Shown here: positions 29,701 through 64,000 of the stretch, in pieces
How the letters are laid out: each line of letters starts with the position of its first letter
Numbering within the stretch: the stretch's first letter is position 1
Source: Haliclystus octoradiatus
Taxonomy: Eukaryota > Cnidaria > Staurozoa > Stauromedusae > Haliclystidae
Direction of reading: 5' to 3'
Assembly (NCBI GenBank): GCA_916610825.1
Contig: OU744452.1
Span: 1,213,543 to 1,277,542 of the forward strand
DNA length: 64,000 nt
Made by a program: the position numbers and the translations under genes
Notes under the pieces: generated by a model
The model's input: the letters and a program-made list of their open reading frames with translations, nothing else
What the model was told of the DNA's origin: nothing
Databases searched by the model: none

Positions 29701-32634
29701 CAGAACCAATCAGAGGTAAGAACAATCAATATGATTGACACATGATTTTGTTATGGAAACATCCAAGTTATTGTTATTGTTATTTTTTCATTGTAGGAAA
29801 TGTTGCATGTTGAAGCAAGGCGTTTCTTTGTTAAAGACGATGCTTTATTTACGCAAAGAAGGATACAAGAATTGTTGCAGTTTGATTCAGAGTTAAAATG
29901 GACATCAAATATTTTGAAGGAATTGCCAATTGCTTTTTTACCAACGTATGTGATTTTGATTTTATTCAAATGAAAACATTCTTAAATTTCTAGCGATAAT
30001 AATAATATAATAATATTAATAGTGGGATTGTTCCACACCCACGAGTGTTGCGTCGTGCGGCACGAGGAAGGCGTAAGAAAATCAAGAGCTGCAGCAGCGA
30101 GTGATTTTCTTAAGCCTTTTTAAGTGCCTAGCTCGAATAAGATAAAAGCTGGAATCGTCGGACCATGATTCTACGCAAACTTCTTTATTTATTCAGGCTA
30201 CCGTTGGTCATAGCCGAATGACGACATTCGAATTAGTTCCGAACCACAGATTGAAGATTATTTGTGCTATGTTGTACTGACAGCGTTTCGATATTAGGGT
30301 TTTAATGAAATTTCACTTGTTCTATTTCTATATATTGTTTATGTTAGTAACTTTTTTATTATTATTAGTTACCCTCATTCTGAAGATCCCTCCAAACCAA
30401 CAATCTACTCAAGTACGAGGTTAGTACCAGTAATTTATGCATTGGTTTAGCAAGCATATTTCTAGCCTTATAGAAACAAGTTATGAATACTGTATGCTGA
30501 CGCATAAACCTGGTACCGAGAATAATCGGCAGTTTTTCTCGATTATCCACAATCAATTAATTTCATTTGAACTATTCAAGGCTTTCGATCTCCCATGAGT
30601 TTTTAGTGTATCCCCATGGTTCCTGGTTTCAAAATGAAAATAGAGTTTATCGACTCTGAGGTTGTGAGAACTGTTCAACCTGTTGTAACGGTCACATCTA
30701 CACAGCAGTCACCTGTCCAAAGTGGTCACCCCTTCAATATCCATAATAGTATTTTCCATTAAATAAACCCTGTATTTAAAGGTCACCTGCATATAATGGT
30801 CAATTTATAACATCTCATATTTGGCTGTTATATACAGGTTTTATTATAGTCATTTATTTTCATTGTATAATCTTGTAGTAATTCATTATATGATTGTGTT
30901 TTTTATCAGATGTCCGGCATGGTGTGATCGGATATTGATGAGTAGTCATCTATACAACACTATCAACGAGGTCAGTCATTCATCATATGTAGTATTTTAA
31001 AGTATCTATAAATATATATTTATAGTTTTATTGAATGTTTTTATCGGATTGGTATTCATATTCTATCAAAGTGTTATTTACGTCTACACAAGTTTTTTTT
31101 CATTTTCAATGGTTAGTACACTATCTATCTAAAGGAGGATTAGCTCAGATGGCAGAGCAACCGAACTTCAGATCGGATCATATCTGATCGACTGTGGTTC
31201 AAATCCCCCTAAGGTCAACTCAGCCGTGACTTTATCTGAAACATCAAATGAGTACCATCGTGAGAATTGTATTGTGAGTAGCTGCGGCGCATCGTTGCGC
31301 ATTGACAATCAAGACCTATCTGCCATGAAATCTGTTGAAATTGATCTGCAGTGTCGCGGCTGAGATTAACAAAGAGCGTTTAAAATCATTGCTCTCAGCG
31401 AAAAAAGCCATTCATCTAGAAATCGAGGAGTGGTACGGGTGCCTTTCGGTAGGGCGACACCGTCTACATTACATTATGTTTTACACTATCTACATTTATT
31501 TTAAGGGTGTTGTCCTACCTGCATGTATATACATATTTTAAATTATGTGAATAAATCATATCCTATTCTATTCTATCCTATCCTACGCGTTTCAAGGGGC
31601 ACTACCCAAAATGAGAGGACACGGGGGCCCCAATATATTATGGCGTAACCCCCCTGGACCATGCCATCCTTGAGCTTATCTGAACATCATTCTGAAGAAA
31701 ATAGAATGAGGTTTCTGATGAAAAACAACTAAAAAGAATGGTCTATCAAAGATATCTATATTCTAATACGTACATTCTGCTATTATAGCGAATTATCGAT
31801 GTTTGAAATTGTTAATTTTCATTATAGTTTGGTTCTGATGTTCAATATGATCTTCTTGGCAGCGATAAATGTGTAGGCGATCATAAGGTATGCTAATCAC
31901 TCGTAACATCCTAATTTGGATGTCAAGCAATTGATCATGTTTGAATGTTTTCCAGACTTATTTTGATCATGTAAGTGTTGGTGTTTGGATTGCGAAATTT
32001 TGGCGATGTAAAATAACCCTTTAGATACTGCATCATAATTAGAATATATTCTCTGAATACTCCGTTCATACCCTCCAATGCTCCTGGAAACAGTAGTATC
32101 TGAACCTTTGTCTGAAATGCATCATGTAGCAATCTTAAAACCATACCCTTTATAGTTTGAAGGTTCTGAGTTGAATACCGTAAACATTTTGTCAAAAGAA
32201 CTAGAAAAGATACCCCTTCAAATTGGCGCATCCTCATCCCCTAATCACGCCAGTCATATTGAAGTTATTCCGGAGGCTAATTCCTCAGAATTCATGTCAC
32301 TACCAACACGAAAATCATGGAAATGCATTTAAAGTGTTGTGAAAACACAATGAAAATGTAAAAAATGAGAACCGCAAATCTTTTAGGCCATGAAAATGTT
32401 TGAAAACCATACAAATATCACGATATTCACGATATCAAGATTTGAAATTTGACGCTCTTTTCATGGTTTTCATGTTAGTAGTGTGTTGTTTTGCTTTGGT
32501 CAGCCTATTAGTATTTTCTGTACATTAATTTTAACAATTTGTATCTATTCTAGCCCGTCTTGCTGAAGTTCAAATTAAAGCTAACTGATTTCACTAACAA
32601 CAATATATCATCGCAGCTAAAATCAGCGGATTGA
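17780..32634 (+). CDS. INPP5A: Type I inositol polyphosphate 5-phosphatase
   Basis: Seventeen exons join in phase: 17780-17842, 20041-20082, 21188-21288, 22369-22456, 23541-23604, 23714-23748, 25011-25082, 26769-26821, 28117-28180, 28498-28553, 28631-28709, 29620-29715, 29797-29945, 30369-30419, 30910-30970, 31828-31887 and 32554-32634. The sum is 1215 nt, 404 residues; the vertebrate enzyme has 412. Landmarks: FCVTANVGSIFEE, HCQEVGG, FLDEDY, WSRKGYM, FVNIHLIHD, LLFGDFNVRLD (metal/catalytic motif), SSTRCPAWCDRIL (substrate/catalytic motif) and VGDHKPV. The enzyme removes the 5-phosphate from Ins(1,4,5)P3 and Ins(1,3,4,5)P4, ending calcium signalling, usually at the plasma membrane. The 42-bp exon 2 (PEKLKKTWVDELLE) is easy to miss. 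Unlike mammals, the C-terminus QLKSAD has no CaaX prenylation box. Introns hold many MITEs, a minisatellite and a SINE. Confidence 0.96.
21309..21375 (+). repeat. Dispersed repeat with AATAAT head and TTGTTCCACACCAG
   Basis: The AATAATAATATAATAAT head followed by ATTGTTCCACACCAGTTCTTGG recurs at about 61495-61590, and a shorter form occurs at 29998-30045. The class is unknown. Confidence 0.5.
21894..22070. mobile_element. Tc1/mariner-like MITE, 177 bp
   Basis: Inverted termini CAGTGAAACCTGT ... ACAGGTTTCACTG are bordered by TA on both sides (21892-21893, 22071-22072), the target of Tc1/mariner elements. The interior repeats GGTGGCCTTTATATACAGG and GGTGGCCGTTATAACAGG. There is no coding capacity. 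Confidence 0.85.
22607..22866 (-). mobile_element. SINE family 1, old minus-strand copy
   Basis: Reads on the minus strand as AGGATTAGCTCAGATGACAG through GATCTGAAGC and a B-box region, then the CTTGATTGTCAATGC and CAGCCGCAACAC segments of the full-length copies. It is diverged and lies in INPP5A intron 4. Confidence 0.75.
23106..23256. repeat. 47-bp tandem repeat, about 3.2 copies
   Basis: Units start at 23106, 23153, 23200 and (partial) 23247. Each begins TGAATTAGTAGGGTCTTTG and ends CTTGTTCTGGGC, with only one or two differences between copies, so the expansion is recent. Confidence 0.95.
24139..24407 (+). mobile_element. hAT-like MITE, copy 1
   Basis: Starts CAGAGATATCTATTTTCAAGA and ends ATAAATAGATGGCTCTG, weak inverted termini. 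The interior contains CAAACCCAGGC and AAAGCAAAACCT, shared with copies at 28823 and 58255. The 8-bp flanks are only partly alike here. Confidence 0.65.
25456..26348. mobile_element. Non-autonomous hAT-like element, 893 bp
   Basis: Ends CAGTGATGTGA ... TTACAACACTG are inverted. The flanks AAACTTGA (25448-25455) and AAACGTGA (26349-26356) match at 7 of 8, the hAT duplication length. Both ends are packed with AAAGTAAT/GTAACGCGTTAC subterminal repeats. An 84-codon frame at 25798-26052 does not resemble a transposase. Confidence 0.8.
26853..27505. repeat. 11-bp minisatellite (ACTGAAAAYGG), about 650 bp
   Basis: Some 58 tandem units of the type ACTGAAAATGG, ACTGAAAACGG or ACTGAAAACAG, with higher-order blocks reused around 27160-27240 and 27310-27400. 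It lies in INPP5A intron 8. Flanking CAGTAGTTTTTCAGT DNA (27560-27625) also occurs alone at 24570-24625, so the array probably grew inside a dispersed repeat. Confidence 0.97.
28823..29074 (+). mobile_element. hAT-like MITE, copy 2
   Basis: Shares CGTCAAACCCAGGCGTGCG, AATAATATCATGAATTC and GATGGCTCTG with copies 1 and 3. The start CAGTGTATAAATTC is degraded and a short piece before the right end is missing. Confidence 0.6.
30690..30850 (-). mobile_element. Degenerate mariner-like repeat
   Basis: A diverged copy of the repeat at 15117/21894: GTCACCTGCATATAATGGTC and GGCTGTTATATACAGG remain. No intact termini. Confidence 0.5.
31128..31481 (+). mobile_element. SINE family 1, full-length copy
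   Basis: A 354-bp element bounded by a perfect 11-bp duplication TACACTATCTA (31117-31127 and 31482-31492). It has an A box (TAGCTCAGATGGCAGAGC), a B box (GGTTCAAATCC), a middle section with GCGGCGCATCGTTGCGC, and a 3' domain GGGCGACACCGTCTACATTA. It lies in INPP5A intron 15. Confidence 0.93.
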
Positions 32635-36197: not shown

Positions 36198-38799
36198 ATG
36201 CTAAACTATCTTGTGCTGCTTCTTCTCATACTGGTAAACACACCTGGTCCATCTCAAGAACTTAGCCGACGCGGTAAGTAATATGAAGCAGCATTTCATC
36301 TACATATAATCTGATTAAGCACATCAATTTGATAACTAACTACAGAGCGAGCATTACAGGACTTGAATACAACTAGGACATACATGCACAACTCAACCTG
36401 TGATTGTGTCAATTCCCTGTCTAGAATGGTCTTTCACAATCTAACATATTATTAGACTGTGTTAAGTATATGCACTTTAGAGGTAACCGATCGTTAATGG
36501 TCACTTTTAACAGGTTAAACACTGACCGCTATCCATAAGTATTACCTTGAATGATCATATCTATTCTTTTATTATCTTAATAGATATTTTCAATGGCGAT
36601 GATGGGAGTACAAATATAGATTTAGATGATGACGATGATGATGACTTGTTTTCATCTGGAGAGAGTGGCGAAGGTAAGCGGCACAGCATGAACTATGAAA
36701 CTTTTGTATCCATTTCCTATTCACATGGCATTGGCAAAACGACCATAAACATGTTCAGATAAGGAAACAGATTTGAAAAAGGACATATTACCCTCAACTT
36801 AATATCAGACAACAAAAACTTCTACGCAAAATAAAACAATCGAGAAAATAGTCAAAAATTATTGGCTAAATGAGTCAAAAAGTATATCTCAAACAAATTT
36901 CAAGGCAGAGAGATACCCTAAAATTTGTTTCTAGAATTTGAAAAAGGTACCCTTTAAAATTTGAATACCCCAGCGGGGGTATTGCGATGTAATTTTAAAT
37001 CTTCAGTCCATGTACGTGTAAAAAGTACATCGTACTCTGAACCTTCACGAAGACTAACTAATCTTTTGTTTTGTTTAGGTTCAGCAGACTTGCAATCTAA
37101 GAGAAACACATACGAGCATTCACCAATGGTATTAGATGATAATTCTAACAAAAAAGATGCCGTTCCTGCTCTTGAAAATAAAGAACTACAAGGTGGAATT
37201 GATAATCCTATCCTCTGGAGTGAAGGCTTCAATGGTAGATCATACGACCATGGCAAACGAATGGAAGAAGGAGAAGGTGGAATGTTACCAGCTGACGTCA
37301 TGCCTAATACAGTCGGACCCAATCCTAATGTGTTTGGTGGATTTCCAGAAAATGACATTTGGGGAAATTTTGAGTTACCATCTCCAGAGAAATTAGAAAT
37401 GATGAAATTAGCGTTGAAACCAAAATCCCCACATCGTCCAAGTTATGATCCACATTATCATGTTGATGTTGGAAATGTACTATATCATTACGAACATAAT
37501 GCCTTACCAGAATATGATGTACACGAAACACCACCATTTACAGTTGGTCTCCTTCATGCTATGAATAAATTAAAACTACAAAATGGTCCAGGCAAAAAAC
37601 CAGCAAATGGTAAATGCCCTCCTGGAATGGGAAGTTGTCCACCGGTTAAAATACAAGCAGGTAAATTACCACCAGGACCATGTAAGAGACCAAACCCAGT
37701 TTGTAATGCTGAAGAGCCCGCTTTATTGAAGCCAGACTATGAACCACCTTGTCCATCAAAGATTTTACAAGCCATTGGTGGATGTGGGCTTGGAAAACAA
37801 GCAAAACCAGGACCAAAAATCCCGGATGAGAAGCCAGAAAATCCTGCTGATATACCTTTTAAGAATCCAAATGTTGGCCCAGACAATAAGCCTGACCAAT
37901 TGGAAGAGCCTAAACCACCTAAGCCACCAAAGGCTCCGGGCAAACCGTCTCCCCCGGATAAAGAAGAAGAGGGGAAAAAACCGGATGCAGATAAACCGGA
38001 ACCACTTCCTATACCTGGCGTAACCGACAACAAATTATTATCAAATGCAAACACAGCAGACCTGACATCAGCATTAACGCCATCAATCAAAGCATTACTT
38101 AGACAACCAGCAAAGTTAAATAGAGATGAGATGTCTGTATTGAAGTTACTAGAAACAGCTTCAGCTCTGAAAGAAGTTAAAGGTAAAACAATGACTGGTC
38201 ATACTGGCAGCAAACCATTGAAAAAGAACCGTTTAGCTACGAGGAAACATATTAAGAGAATCGCCAGAGGATTTTTCAATCCATACCAAATCAGTCACGA
38301 AGATAGTGCTTTTACGGGGATTGAAAGAGGAATGAGTAATCAAATGGCGCCAGAGGAATACCCCACTGTGGGGACAGACGATGACTTTGCATATGAATCC
38401 CCTGATGAGTTAATGGGGGTCAAACAAACACAATTAACCCATGAATTTGCAAGGTTGAAAAAAGAACAAGAAAAGATCAAAATCAGTAAAGATTTAAAAG
38501 ACAGTGAATCGGTTGCGTTGATGATGAAAGTTGGCGGTGAATTAGAAAAAACAATGGCTAATAAATTGAATGATTTGTCATTAAATGGCGGAAAGAAAGA
38601 AAAGAATTCAGAGGCAGAAGCGGCACAAGTGACAGCAACAGCTGAAGATGCCAAACATTTGAGTTCATTTTTTGATCAAATCAGCAACGAAACGAAATCA
38701 TCTGATAAGGAGAAAGGTAGACATCATCTACACCAACTTAAAAATAGAATAAATATCTTGAAAAAAAAACATCACAAGGCTAAAAAGCATCATGCATAA
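36198..38799 (+). CDS. Secreted acidic/Pro-rich protein (short-form isoform)
   Basis: Three coding exons, 36198-36273, 36584-36673 and 37079-38799, give 628 residues. Residues 1-20 are a signal peptide (MLNYLVLLLLILVNTPGPSQ). Exon 2 has a run of seven Asp, then LFSSGESGEG, which looks like a glycosaminoglycan attachment site. Exon 3 is low in Cys and rich in Pro, Lys, Asn and Gly, with CPPGMGSCPP, a Pro/Lys/Glu-rich block (PKPPKPPKAPGKPSPPDKEE) and several dibasic sites (SKR, HGKR, HIKR). It ends in a basic His-rich tail (HHKAKKHHA). AATAAA follows the stop at 38833-38838, so exon 3 is a terminal exon. No family was recognised; an extracellular-matrix protein is a reasonable guess. Exons 1 and 2 end in phase 1 and could instead splice to the TSP1 exon at 39806. 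Confidence 0.85.
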
Positions 38800-39111
38800 T
38801 ACAATCACTCACATGTATTTATAAACTAACAAAATAAACACTAAAAGCATTGATCATATCTTGTATTTGTTGTTGCAGTATTTGACTATCGCGTTCTCTG
38901 TCTCGTTCAGGATTGTCTCTTTCTAAATACAATCAATATTTTCCTCGTTTAAACAACTTATTTCCATAGCTCAACGTGGATTTTAAATGTCGTAAGATGT
39001 TCCTGGATATAGGGTGACAGAGAACGATAGTCAAATACAACTACAAGTGAAGATGTCTATCAGATATACCCCCATGTTTAACGATTACCGAACCACACAG
39101 AGCACAATATA

Positions 39112-39300
39112 ATGAATATGGTAAAGCAGTTAGTGCAACCTTGGTGTGTAGTGGTTAAGGTTATGGACAACAGCCCGCGAGGGTCTTGGGTTCAACTCCT
39201 TGAAGGGGGAGCACTATTGATTGGTGGCAGGAAAGTCAACCAGCCACAAAAACACTCGAGAGTACCACCAGACACCCAGTTGAGAAAAAAAGTCACCTGC
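39112..39300 (+). mobile_element. SINE family 2 copy
   Basis: GTGTAGTGGTTAAGGTTATG (A-box region) and GGTCTTGGGTTCAACTCC (B-box region) are spaced as in tRNA-derived SINEs, followed by GGGGGAGCACTATT. It resembles the copies at 6190 (minus) and 50300. The 68-codon frame across it is an artefact. Confidence 0.6.
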
Positions 39301-39584
39301 GGTTTTCGTGGATTATGATAAATCAAAAAAATTAAATCAGTTGTACACGTATATAGTATATGTAGTTAGATGTAGGTGGGTGGTTTGAATTGAATATCAA
39401 AAACACTGGTCTGCTCTTTGATAGCAATACTACAGGTAAGCGTCGAGTAACACAATACTGTGACATCATAATATGTGATAGATTTCATAGGAGATAATCA
39501 TTCCATTCGACAACAGAAGATGGTGCTTATTTGTGATGTTTTAGACAAAGCCAGGGCTGAGTTTATATTCGGTGCATTTGAATA

Positions 39585-39650
39585 TCAGATATGATCAGAT
39601 CTTAAGTTCGTTGCTCTGCCATTTGAGCTAATCTTCTCACAGACACCATA
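39585..39650 (-). mobile_element. SINE family 1 head fragment
   Basis: The minus strand reads AGATTAGCTCAAATGGCAGAGC then GATCATATCTGA-type sequence, the tRNA-like head only, with the rest missing or unrecognisable. Confidence 0.6.
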
Positions 39651-39805
39651 TGAATGAAAATGATGCTGGATAAACAGTGAAATAGAAAGGTCACCTGTAT
39701 AGAAGGGTCGCTCAGCTGGAAAGGTCGACATTTCCGCATCTCATAGCTTCCACCTGTATTCTGCCACTGACATTCATTTGGTCTTTTCTCTGCGGTTAGT
39801 TTCAG

Positions 39806-41868
39806 ATGAAGAGAGGAACACTTTCTCACCTTGGACAGAATGGACAGCATGTAGTGTCACGTGTTCAGCTGGTACAACGACAAGAACACGTGTCTGCAAT
39901 CAGAAAAAGTGTGTTGGAAAGGCTGTGGATATCAAAGAATGCGTCCAGACAGACTGCCCAGGTCAGTAATATACACCCGCATTGAAACTGACTAATCTGA
40001 ACAATTACTTTTCAATAAACAATACTAACAAAGGCATAAAATTGACCATCGCGCCTTGCGTGCGCTCAAAGTTGAAAAGTGAATGCTATTTTCAAGTCAC
40101 AAATTGTGCAGTGAATTAGTGCATCATGCAACATAATCGAAGACCGAGCGCAATGAACAACAGTCAATTTTATGCCTTTCAGCAGATAATCATAGACCGG
40201 ACAGATTATTAAACGACTTCACGAATGTGTAGCAAAAACGATTAACCAGGCAATAACTTGTGATAACAAGTAAATAAACGAACGGCATGACATAGAACGG
40301 AAACAAAAGACAAACACACAACAACAGCAAATAAGGCAAAGTGGTTATAAACTCCTATTTCTCTGTGTGCAGCGTACTTTGAGTGGAGTGCTTGGACATC
40401 ATGTAGTTCAACATGTGGTCGAGGTTATATGATGAGAAAGAGGTCATGTCCTGTTAGCAAATGTTCTGGTTCATCAACACAGGCGAAAGAATGTTTCAGG
40501 GACACTTGCGCTGGAGGTGAGGATTAGAAATATCATCTCAAGAATATGCACGAAAGCGAAGAAATCGTCTGTGGAATGGAATGCAGATATAGTGGCAAGC
40601 GTCGTTGAAACCATGTAGTAGCAAAAACGCATGAATTCCTCAACTTTCGGATTGATGATCATAAAAACAACCAACTTTAATTTATATAGCACGTCAAAAT
40701 TAAGTCAAGGATCCATCGAGAGGCAAGAAAAGAGACTTTGTAAACATACAAATGAAGAAAGAAAAAAAGATTCAGTCGAAAGGAAGGAAAACCCTTGAAA
40801 ACCTCCTTGAAACATTCGCTAGATTAGTGCTTTCTTTCTTTCTTTTGGAACTAACAAAAAGGATGAAGTCAGCTAATTGAAGGAACTCCTTCATTAACTG
40901 ATTACAAAATAGTTATTGAGAGGTGTTTTGTAGCCTTCTTTTTCATTGGACTCCAAAGGTCTACTTACCCAGGAGTCCATACTAGCCTCAGTTTGTTATC
41001 GTTATTAAGTCACCCAAGTGTAACCTGTGACGACAATGTTCTTATCTATTTCTGCTTAATTCTCTAATCTATATGCAGCTGGAAAACCTGCTGCCGTTGA
41101 TCCGTCAGCACCAAGTTGGGGAGAATGGTCTCCGTGCACTTCAACATGCGGAGCCGGATTAAAAGTAAGAAAACGAAACTGTAAAGGAAAGTCATGTGAC
41201 GGATACCGGGATTTGGTACAAAGCAAAACATGTCTTAACAAGAAATGTGGTAAACGTAAGTTGAAATTTGAAACACGGGTTATAAAAAGGCGGGAAAACC
41301 ATAACGAGGCTAATTGTTGAATTATTGTTGATGATTGACAGGTCAAGAAGTGCCAATTCAAGTTCAACGTGAATGTGTTGGCCTCCATAATAAATATCGC
41401 ACTGCGCATAAATCATTAGAAATCAGTTGGGACGATTCACTGGCAGACGAAGCACAAGACATAGCAGAAACTATGGCGATAAGTCATACAAAACCAAGTG
41501 AAGTTAAACTGTATGAACGGTCGGGAGTATCAGCTGCGTTGGTCAAATCAAATAAAAACACCAAGGAACTCACAGGAGAACAAGCAGTTACAGATAATAG
41601 CACCGTTGGTTTATGTTCACATGTTATTGACAAATGGTACGCAGAAAAAGAATTTTATGATTTCATGAACCCAAAATTATCAAATAAAAATAAACATTTT
41701 ACGCAATTAGTATGGAAATCAACAAAGAAAATAGGAATCGGAGAAGCAGCAGCACCCCCTGGATTGATTTATTTTGTAACAATGTATGACCCCCCCGGTA
41801 ATATCGATGACGTAGATAGTAAAAAGAATAATCTACCAATCGGTGAAGAGGGCAAAGGTCTTCCATAA
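39806..41868 (+). CDS. Three thrombospondin type-1 domains plus CAP domain
   Basis: Four exons in one frame: 39806-39961, 40373-40516, 41079-41255 and 41342-41868. The first three each encode a TSP1 repeat with W-x-x-W (C-mannosylation) and C-x-x-[ST]-C motifs: WTEWTACSVTCSAG, WSAWTSCSSTCGRG and WGEWSPCTSTCGAG. The last encodes a CAP/SCP domain closest in pattern to GAPR-1/GLIPR2: CVGLHNKYRTAH, VIDKWYAEKEFYDF, KHFTQLVWKSTKKIGIG and MYDPPGNID. In the CAP site, His of SHTKP, Glu of WYAE and His of KHFTQ are present, but the Glu of the usual G-E-N-L motif is absent (SGVSAAL). All junctions are phase 1, and the first needs one upstream base. Joining to exon 2 at 36673 makes GAT and a 389-residue secreted protein. 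ATTAAA at 41909-41914 is a likely polyA signal. A separate gene with an unseen first exon is the alternative. Confidence 0.88.
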
Positions 41869-41926
41869 AATCGTTTCCATTCAATTATGTTATTGCAAAC
41901 TCGAACATATTAAAGCTCAGCTTTAA

Positions 41927-42130: not shown

Positions 42131-64000
<21,870 letters not shown>

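What the first reader, a model, noticed from the sequence alone, without database searches (positions are those of the whole stretch)
36198..41868. Phase-1 modular locus: Pro-rich terminal exon or TSP1x3-CAP as alternative ends
Every internal junction (36273, 36673, 39961, 40516, 41255) is phase 1. The Pro-rich exon carries its own stop and AATAAA, and no separate signal-peptide exon precedes the TSP1 exons. One signal peptide and Asp-rich segment could therefore feed two unrelated C-terminal halves. TSP1 repeats fused to a GAPR-1-like CAP domain is an uncommon architecture.
Basis: partly seen in the sequence, partly recalled or inferred. Interest (0 to 1): 0.72.

Follow-up and report, generated by a model that had tools for sequence, protein, structure and literature searches.

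The report
Jellyfish secreted-protein locus, possible alternative ends
In a stalked jellyfish, one signal-peptide start lies upstream of two unrelated possible endings for a secreted matrix-type protein; the layout is real and would allow either end to be used, but only RNA data can show whether it is one gene or two neighbours.

Summary
In the window (Haliclystus octoradiatus, chromosome 7) I find a signal-peptide exon, an Asp-run exon, a 1.7-kb Pro/Lys-rich exon with its own stop and poly(A) signal, then three TSP1 exons and a GAPR-1-like CAP exon. All junctions are phase 1.

The main argument offered for alternative ends is weak: phase 1 is the norm for TSP1 exons in this genome (36 of 38 predicted acceptors, 37 of 38 donors; redundant rows, six of them this locus).

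Better support: I found no other signal-peptide exon with a usable phase-1 donor between 36275 and 39806; the AATAAA at 38833 is one of 2 of 105 plus-strand AATAAA with a strongly GT-rich stretch downstream; and the His/Lys-rich tail before the stop looks translated.

TSP1 plus GAPR-1-type CAP is not new in Cnidaria: red-coral skeletal protein CR_3-4 has CAP followed by two TSP1. The order here is reversed.

Best reading: one gene with a skipped terminal exon, as in calcitonin/CGRP (about 0.5). Two neighbouring genes, or a hybrid protein through an internal donor, remain open. Published RNA-seq (ERR9434978) could decide.

The parts
36198..36273 (+). Exon 1: signal peptide (MLNYLVLLLLILVNTPGPSQ, cleavage point guessed), then ELSRR; donor GCG|GTAAGT, phase 1
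   Evidence: the only hydrophobic ATG-led start with a phase-1 donor found in 36198-39806
36584..36673 (+). Exon 2: Asp run and SSGESGE (acidic plus Ser-Gly pairs, possible glycosaminoglycan attachment, inferred); donor AAG|GTAAGC is the highest scored
37079..38799 (+). Exon 3a: Pro/Lys-rich terminal exon with own stop; 6 Cys, His/Lys-rich tail
   Evidence: one DNA match in the genome, itself
38833..38838 (+). AATAAA of exon 3a, with GT-rich TTGTATTTGTTGTTG downstream
39806..39961 (+). Exon 3b: TSP1 number 1 (tandem acceptor also at 39800)
40373..40516 (+). Exon 4: TSP1 number 2
41079..41255 (+). Exon 5: TSP1 number 3; alternative donors 41249 and 41255 leave out or keep Lys-Arg
41342..41868 (+). 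Exon 6: GAPR-1-like CAP domain and stop
41909..41914 (+). ATTAAA, possible poly(A) signal of the CAP end (its downstream GT content is unremarkable)

Best explanation
One gene with two mutually exclusive 3' ends. Exons 1 and 2 (signal peptide, acidic Asp/Ser-Gly segment) are spliced either to exon 3a, which ends in its own stop and poly(A) site and gives a secreted, low-complexity Pro/Lys/His-rich protein, or past it to exon 3b, which gives a secreted protein with three TSP1 domains and a C-terminal GAPR-1-like CAP domain. The choice would be a competition between recognition of exon 3a with cleavage at its poly(A) site and splicing over it, as in the calcitonin/CGRP gene. Both products would be matrix or adhesive secretions. 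Shown: exons, frames, splice signals, domains, poly(A) context, no other leader found in the interval. Inferred: that both transcripts exist, the switch, and the function.
For: Both joins are in frame. The exon 3a acceptor ties for the best and the exon 3b acceptor for the second-best score of 209 AGs between 36691 and 39806, and the exon 2 donor is the highest scored. No ATG-led signal-peptide-like exon with a phase-1 donor in 36275-39806, and no hydrophobic open segment with such a donor when no ATG is required; in the whole window, both strands, the strict phase-1 scan gives two sites, one of them exon 1. AATAAA 38833 is one of 2 of 105 plus-strand AATAAA with at least 14 of 15 G/T downstream. 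The last 27 residues before the exon 3a stop hold 7 His and 7 Lys; 1 of 17,107 open, overlapping 27-codon windows of comparison sequence has 7 or more His, and 0 also has 6 or more Lys. Skipped terminal exons tend to carry a canonical poly(A) signal (PMC3647115, passages).
Against: No transcript was examined. Phase agreement is uninformative. Other AGs in the interval tie with the two acceptors, including one at 38911. The His-tail and GT-run tests were chosen after seeing the sequence, and the comparison sequence includes a transporter-like gene's exons in the first 7 kb. No relative with the same layout could be compared: the tool holds no relatives of this genome; leader and Pro-rich DNA match only themselves, and the protein search for diverged copies of the Pro-rich exon did not complete.
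Confidence: 0.5

Rival explanations
1. Two neighbouring genes. Exons 1-2-3a form a complete Pro-rich secreted protein gene that ends after 38833, and the TSP1x3-CAP exons belong to a second gene with its own promoter and a first coding exon that I did not recognise (split signal peptide, weak donor, or a distant upstream exon).
For: A good poly(A) context sits between the two halves. A hydrophobic ATG-led start with a phase-1 donor lies further upstream at 30305-30419. My scans needed a donor score of at least 5 or 6 (or 4 of 7 matches), and one plausible donor of this locus scores only 4.0 (41249).
Against: No signal-peptide-like exon found in the 1 kb between the halves or elsewhere in 36275-39806. 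The candidate at 30305 lies 6 kb upstream of exon 1, and its transcripts would have to skip exons 1 and 2.
Confidence: 0.28
2. One long protein from a composite exon. An internal phase-1 donor of exon 3a (37661 CAG|GTAAAT, 38183 AAG|GTAAAA, or 38717 AAG|GTAGAC) is spliced to exon 3b and gives SP-Asp-Pro-rich-TSP1x3-CAP; the stop and poly(A) signal serve a shorter form only.
For: In the same genome a long low-complexity open frame at C2:33568209-33570266 runs straight into a TSP1 domain and ends at CAG|GTAAAT, the motif present at 37661; the same motif is the predicted donor of another TSP1 exon. All nine internal donors scoring 5 or more are in phase 1.
Against: The number of such donors is what codon shuffling gives: 9, 4 and 1 at scores of at least 5, 6 and 7, against means of 9.3, 3.4 and 0.6; they are in phase 1 because they fall in GGT or similar codons. 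The frame stays open to the stop and the tail looks coding. The C2 frame and exon 3a share no detectable similarity.
Confidence: 0.2

Closest known systems
Corallium rubrum skeletal matrix protein CR_3-4 (CAP-like), PMC7853314
   Same: A secreted cnidarian protein that joins a GAPR-1 CAP domain with TSP1 domains; in the top ten by emPAI in all four skeletal fractions, with homologues among stony-coral matrix proteins according to that paper (passages)
   Different: There CAP comes first and two TSP1 follow; here three TSP1 come first and CAP is last. No alternative end is described in the passages seen. Haliclystus makes no coral-type skeleton (recalled). Sequence orthology was not tested.
CALCA (calcitonin/CGRP) coding-region alternative polyadenylation, PMC3647115
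   Same: Alternative C-terminal coding regions by last-exon splicing and a proximal poly(A) site (passages; the exact exon layout is recalled)
   Different: A vertebrate peptide-hormone gene with proven transcripts, whose proximal site is described as weak; here there is no transcript evidence, and the two ends are a low-complexity protein and a TSP1-CAP protein
Module run at C2:33.54-33.57 Mb of the same genome
   Same: VWA, CAP, C-type lectin, F5/8C, a long low-complexity frame and two TSP1 domains on one strand
   Different: Not shown to be one gene; CAP and TSP1 lie about 20 kb apart; the long low-complexity frame is continuous with TSP1
GAPR-1 (GLIPR2), PDB 1smb
   Same: CAP core, E 2.9e-16
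   Different: Human protein is a lone CAP domain (recalled). At the GEN motif the window CAP has GVS where six Haliclystus relatives have GE (four) or GQ (two); 15 residues nearby have model confidence under 50

Membership tests
CAP superfamily, GAPR-1-like | CAP domain profile | tested here: met
CAP superfamily, GAPR-1-like | Putative metal-binding His-Glu-Glu-His tetrad (recalled definition) | tested here: not met
   The His of HFT and the Glu of WYAE are present, but the GEN Glu is Val in alignment A1; two of the six aligned relatives also lack it (Gln). This speaks against the tetrad, not against the fold.
Thrombospondin type 1 repeat proteins | TSP1 profile, WxxW, C-x-x-S/T-C-x-x-G motif (motifs recalled) | tested here: met
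   Three PF00090 stretches; WTEW, WSAW, WGEW and CSVTCSAG, CSSTCGRG, CTSTCGAG
CR_3-4-type CAP-TSP1 proteins | CAP followed by two TSP1 | tested here: not met
   Order and number differ: three TSP1, then CAP
CR_3-4-type CAP-TSP1 proteins | Sequence orthology to the coral protein | not testable with these tools
   No animal genome or protein collection other than this genome and solved structures is offered
CALCA-like skipped terminal exon | Internal terminal exon with own acceptor, stop and poly(A) site, followed by in-frame downstream exons | tested here: met
   By sequence signals only:
CALCA-like skipped terminal exon | Both transcripts exist | not testable with these tools
   No RNA reads available

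The most novel reading that the evidence does not exclude
A single cnidarian leader, signal peptide plus acidic Ser-Gly segment, is switched by competition between a canonical poly(A) site and exon skipping between two unrelated secreted products: a low-complexity Pro/Lys/His-rich matrix protein and a TSP1x3-CAP protein. Both would thus enter the same secretion with a shared N-terminal tag, for example pedal-disc or mesoglea matrix.
Probability: 0.42. Interest if true: 0.5.

Novelty: new variant of a known kind. Interest (0 to 1): 0.35.

Why it matters
If both ends are used, one promoter and leader would set the ratio of two unrelated matrix proteins by RNA processing. I saw no such report for Cnidaria in the listings (10 of 47 papers shown; 12 of 1,311 shown), which is a thin search. 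The TSP1-CAP end also hints that this domain pair, known from coral skeletons, is a wider cnidarian matrix theme, since it occurs in a staurozoan. The test is cheap because RNA-seq exists.

Tried and rejected
Phase-1 agreement as evidence for alternative splicing: rejected, since it is the base state of TSP1 exons here. A repeated origin of the locus: DNA searches with the leader, the Pro-rich exon and the spacer 38850-39060 return only themselves; with the TSP1-CAP region, the 40 matches besides itself are one dispersed repeat of about 150 bp in the intron after TSP1 number 1 (714 candidates, so a lower bound). Another TSP1-CAP copy: of 41 CAP places, 20 had loci, the window included (two of these loci show one and the same frame on C11); none of the other 19 has TSP1 within about 1.5 kb by the profile, nor do eight stretches of 9.9 kb around nine of them; one weak 25-aa tblastn match in L015 (E 0.023) was not confirmed by the profile; the 21 CAP places without loci were not examined. 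One CAP place (C2:33548226) has TSP1 exons about 20 kb downstream on the same strand. Homology of exon 3a to the C2 low-complexity frame: none. tRNA scan of the window: none, bacterial settings. Paper searches for TSP1 with CAP: (listings). In passages searched by word, no CAP/SCP protein was found in the cnidarian TSR survey (PMC5446238), the Hydra TSR paper (PMC4820225), the Nematostella matrisome (PMC12549020) or the Acropora digitifera skeletal proteome (PMC4890752); the last does not back the presence of CR_3-4 homologues in stony-coral skeletons. A coral settlement paper lists SCP proteins and TSP proteins separately (PMC3204972). The thrombospondin-superfamily paper gave nothing on CAP (PMC6526912). 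The sea-anemone pedal disc is enriched in TSP1 and PR-1-like families (PMC6626399, passages), the basis for the adhesive guess; there the GAPR-1 genes listed carry PR-1-like alone.
Full report
Organism. The window lies in an assembly of 261,861,806 bases in 33 contigs. Contig C1 is 39,977,743 and C5 28,991,210 bases, exactly the longest scaffold and the scaffold N50 printed for Haliclystus octoradiatus jrHalOcto1.1, 33 scaffolds (PMC9975415, first of two parts of the text read). The printed span is 261,898,343, which is 36,537 more than the tool's; I did not resolve this. C8 (21,348,345) fits chromosome 7, 21.35 Mb. So this is a stalked jellyfish (Cnidaria, Staurozoa).

The observation. The exon model was rebuilt, and all named junctions are phase 1 with GT/AG borders. 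Pfam finds TSP_1 three times and CAP once in the spliced product, and nothing above cut-off in the Pro-rich exon. The CAP exon is nearest Pry1 and GAPR-1 among solved proteins. The Pro-rich frame, 613 codons stop to stop, is not chance: the longest frame in 300 base shuffles of the exon was 173.

What phase 1 is worth. TSP1 exons elsewhere in this genome were taken from a TSP1 search (59 matches listed from 150 of 586 candidates scored, 20 with loci). Best-scoring acceptors are phase 1 in 36 of 38 rows and donors in 37 of 38. Six rows are the window's own three exons seen twice; without them 30 of 32 and 31 of 32. Other rows also repeat where loci overlap, and the sites are predictions. Phase 1 is thus the normal state and gives little support to alternative ends.

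Is the Pro-rich exon a true last exon? The stop is followed 33 nt later by AATAAA and then TTGTATTTGTTGTTG. Of 105 plus-strand AATAAA in the window 2, this one included, have at least 14 of 15 G/T in the 10-50 nt downstream. The 27 residues before the stop hold 7 His and 7 Lys; of 17,107 open windows of that length in comparison stretches, 1 has 7 or more His and none also 6 or more Lys. These windows overlap one another, and the stretches include exons of a transporter-like gene in the first 7 kb (by eye). Both tests were devised after seeing the sequence.

Where does the TSP1-CAP half get its start? The open frame of TSP1 number 1 has no ATG, so it needs an upstream phase-1 exon; its cysteine-rich domains imply secretion (inference). 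Between 36275 and 39806 no ATG-led exon with a hydrophobic start and a phase-1 donor was found, nor any hydrophobic open segment with a phase-1 donor of score 6 or more when no ATG was required. In the whole window, both strands, the strict phase-1 scan finds two sites, 30419 and exon 1. The exon 3a and 3b acceptors tie for the best and second-best scores of 209 AGs, though other AGs tie with them. The simplest source is exon 2, with exon 1 as second choice.

Rivals. Internal donors of exon 3a are as many as codon shuffles give, but one, CAG|GTAAAT at 37661, equals donors predicted for other TSP1 exons, and elsewhere in the genome a low-complexity frame does run into TSP1. A hybrid protein is therefore possible. 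A second gene with an unrecognised first exon is also possible; the thresholds of my scans exceed the score of one plausible donor in this very locus (41249, 4.0).

The TSP1-CAP protein. WxxW and fucosylation-type motifs are present in all three TSP1. In the CAP domain the Glu of the GEN motif is Val; four of six aligned relatives have Glu and two Gln. A segment of 15 residues nearby has model confidence under 50. The tetrad definition is recalled. The stronger donor of exon 5 adds Lys-Arg right before the CAP domain (CGKR-QEVP), a possible cleavage site (inference).

What is known. In Corallium rubrum, CR_3-4 is a GAPR-1 CAP domain followed by two TSP1, abundant in both biominerals and, by that paper, with homologues among stony-coral matrix proteins (PMC7853314, passages); passages of an Acropora skeletal proteome paper show no CAP protein (PMC4890752). 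The sea-anemone pedal disc is enriched in TSP1 and PR-1-like families (PMC6626399, passages). In Haliclystus itself, VWA, CAP, lectin, F5/8C and TSP1 modules stand on one strand within about 30 kb of C2. The domain pair therefore looks like a cnidarian matrix theme, and the window adds a reversed order. The layout of leader, skipped terminal exon and downstream exons is that of calcitonin/CGRP (PMC3647115, PMC4227790, passages; details recalled). Searches of open papers for alternative last exons in Cnidaria gave nothing to the point in the listings seen.

Verdict. Real anatomy, sound proposal, no transcript proof; probability of alternative ends about one half. Each part resembles a known kind, and one RNA-seq mapping would settle it.

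Noticed in passing
38870-38891 and 39025-39046: Inverted repeat of 22 nt, 86% complementary, that starts about 30 nt after the AATAAA of exon 3a; the DNA search returns only this copy, so it is not an evident mobile element.
   Followed up: partly
about 40030-40180: Dispersed repeat of about 150 bp in the intron after TSP1 number 1; at least 40 further matches genome-wide at 71-86% identity.
   Followed up: partly
41249 / 41255: Two donors 6 nt apart in exon 5 add or omit Lys-Arg just before the CAP domain; may control proteolytic release of CAP.
   Followed up: no
about 42150-42870, minus strand: Convergent gene with an EF-hand-like stretch ([13 protein letters not shown]) downstream of the CAP exon; read by eye.
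   Followed up: no
45257-48442, minus strand: Long open frames of a non-LTR retrotransposon (endonuclease-like and reverse transcriptase-like, by eye).
   Followed up: no
L052-L054 (C2:33.543-33.573 Mb): Run of VWA, CAP, C-type lectin, F5/8C, low-complexity and TSP1 exons on one strand, perhaps one giant matrix gene and nearer to coral CR_3-4 in domain order, CAP before two TSP1.
   Followed up: partly
C7:20.89-20.93 and 21.43-21.59 Mb: Clusters of many CAP matches.
   Followed up: no
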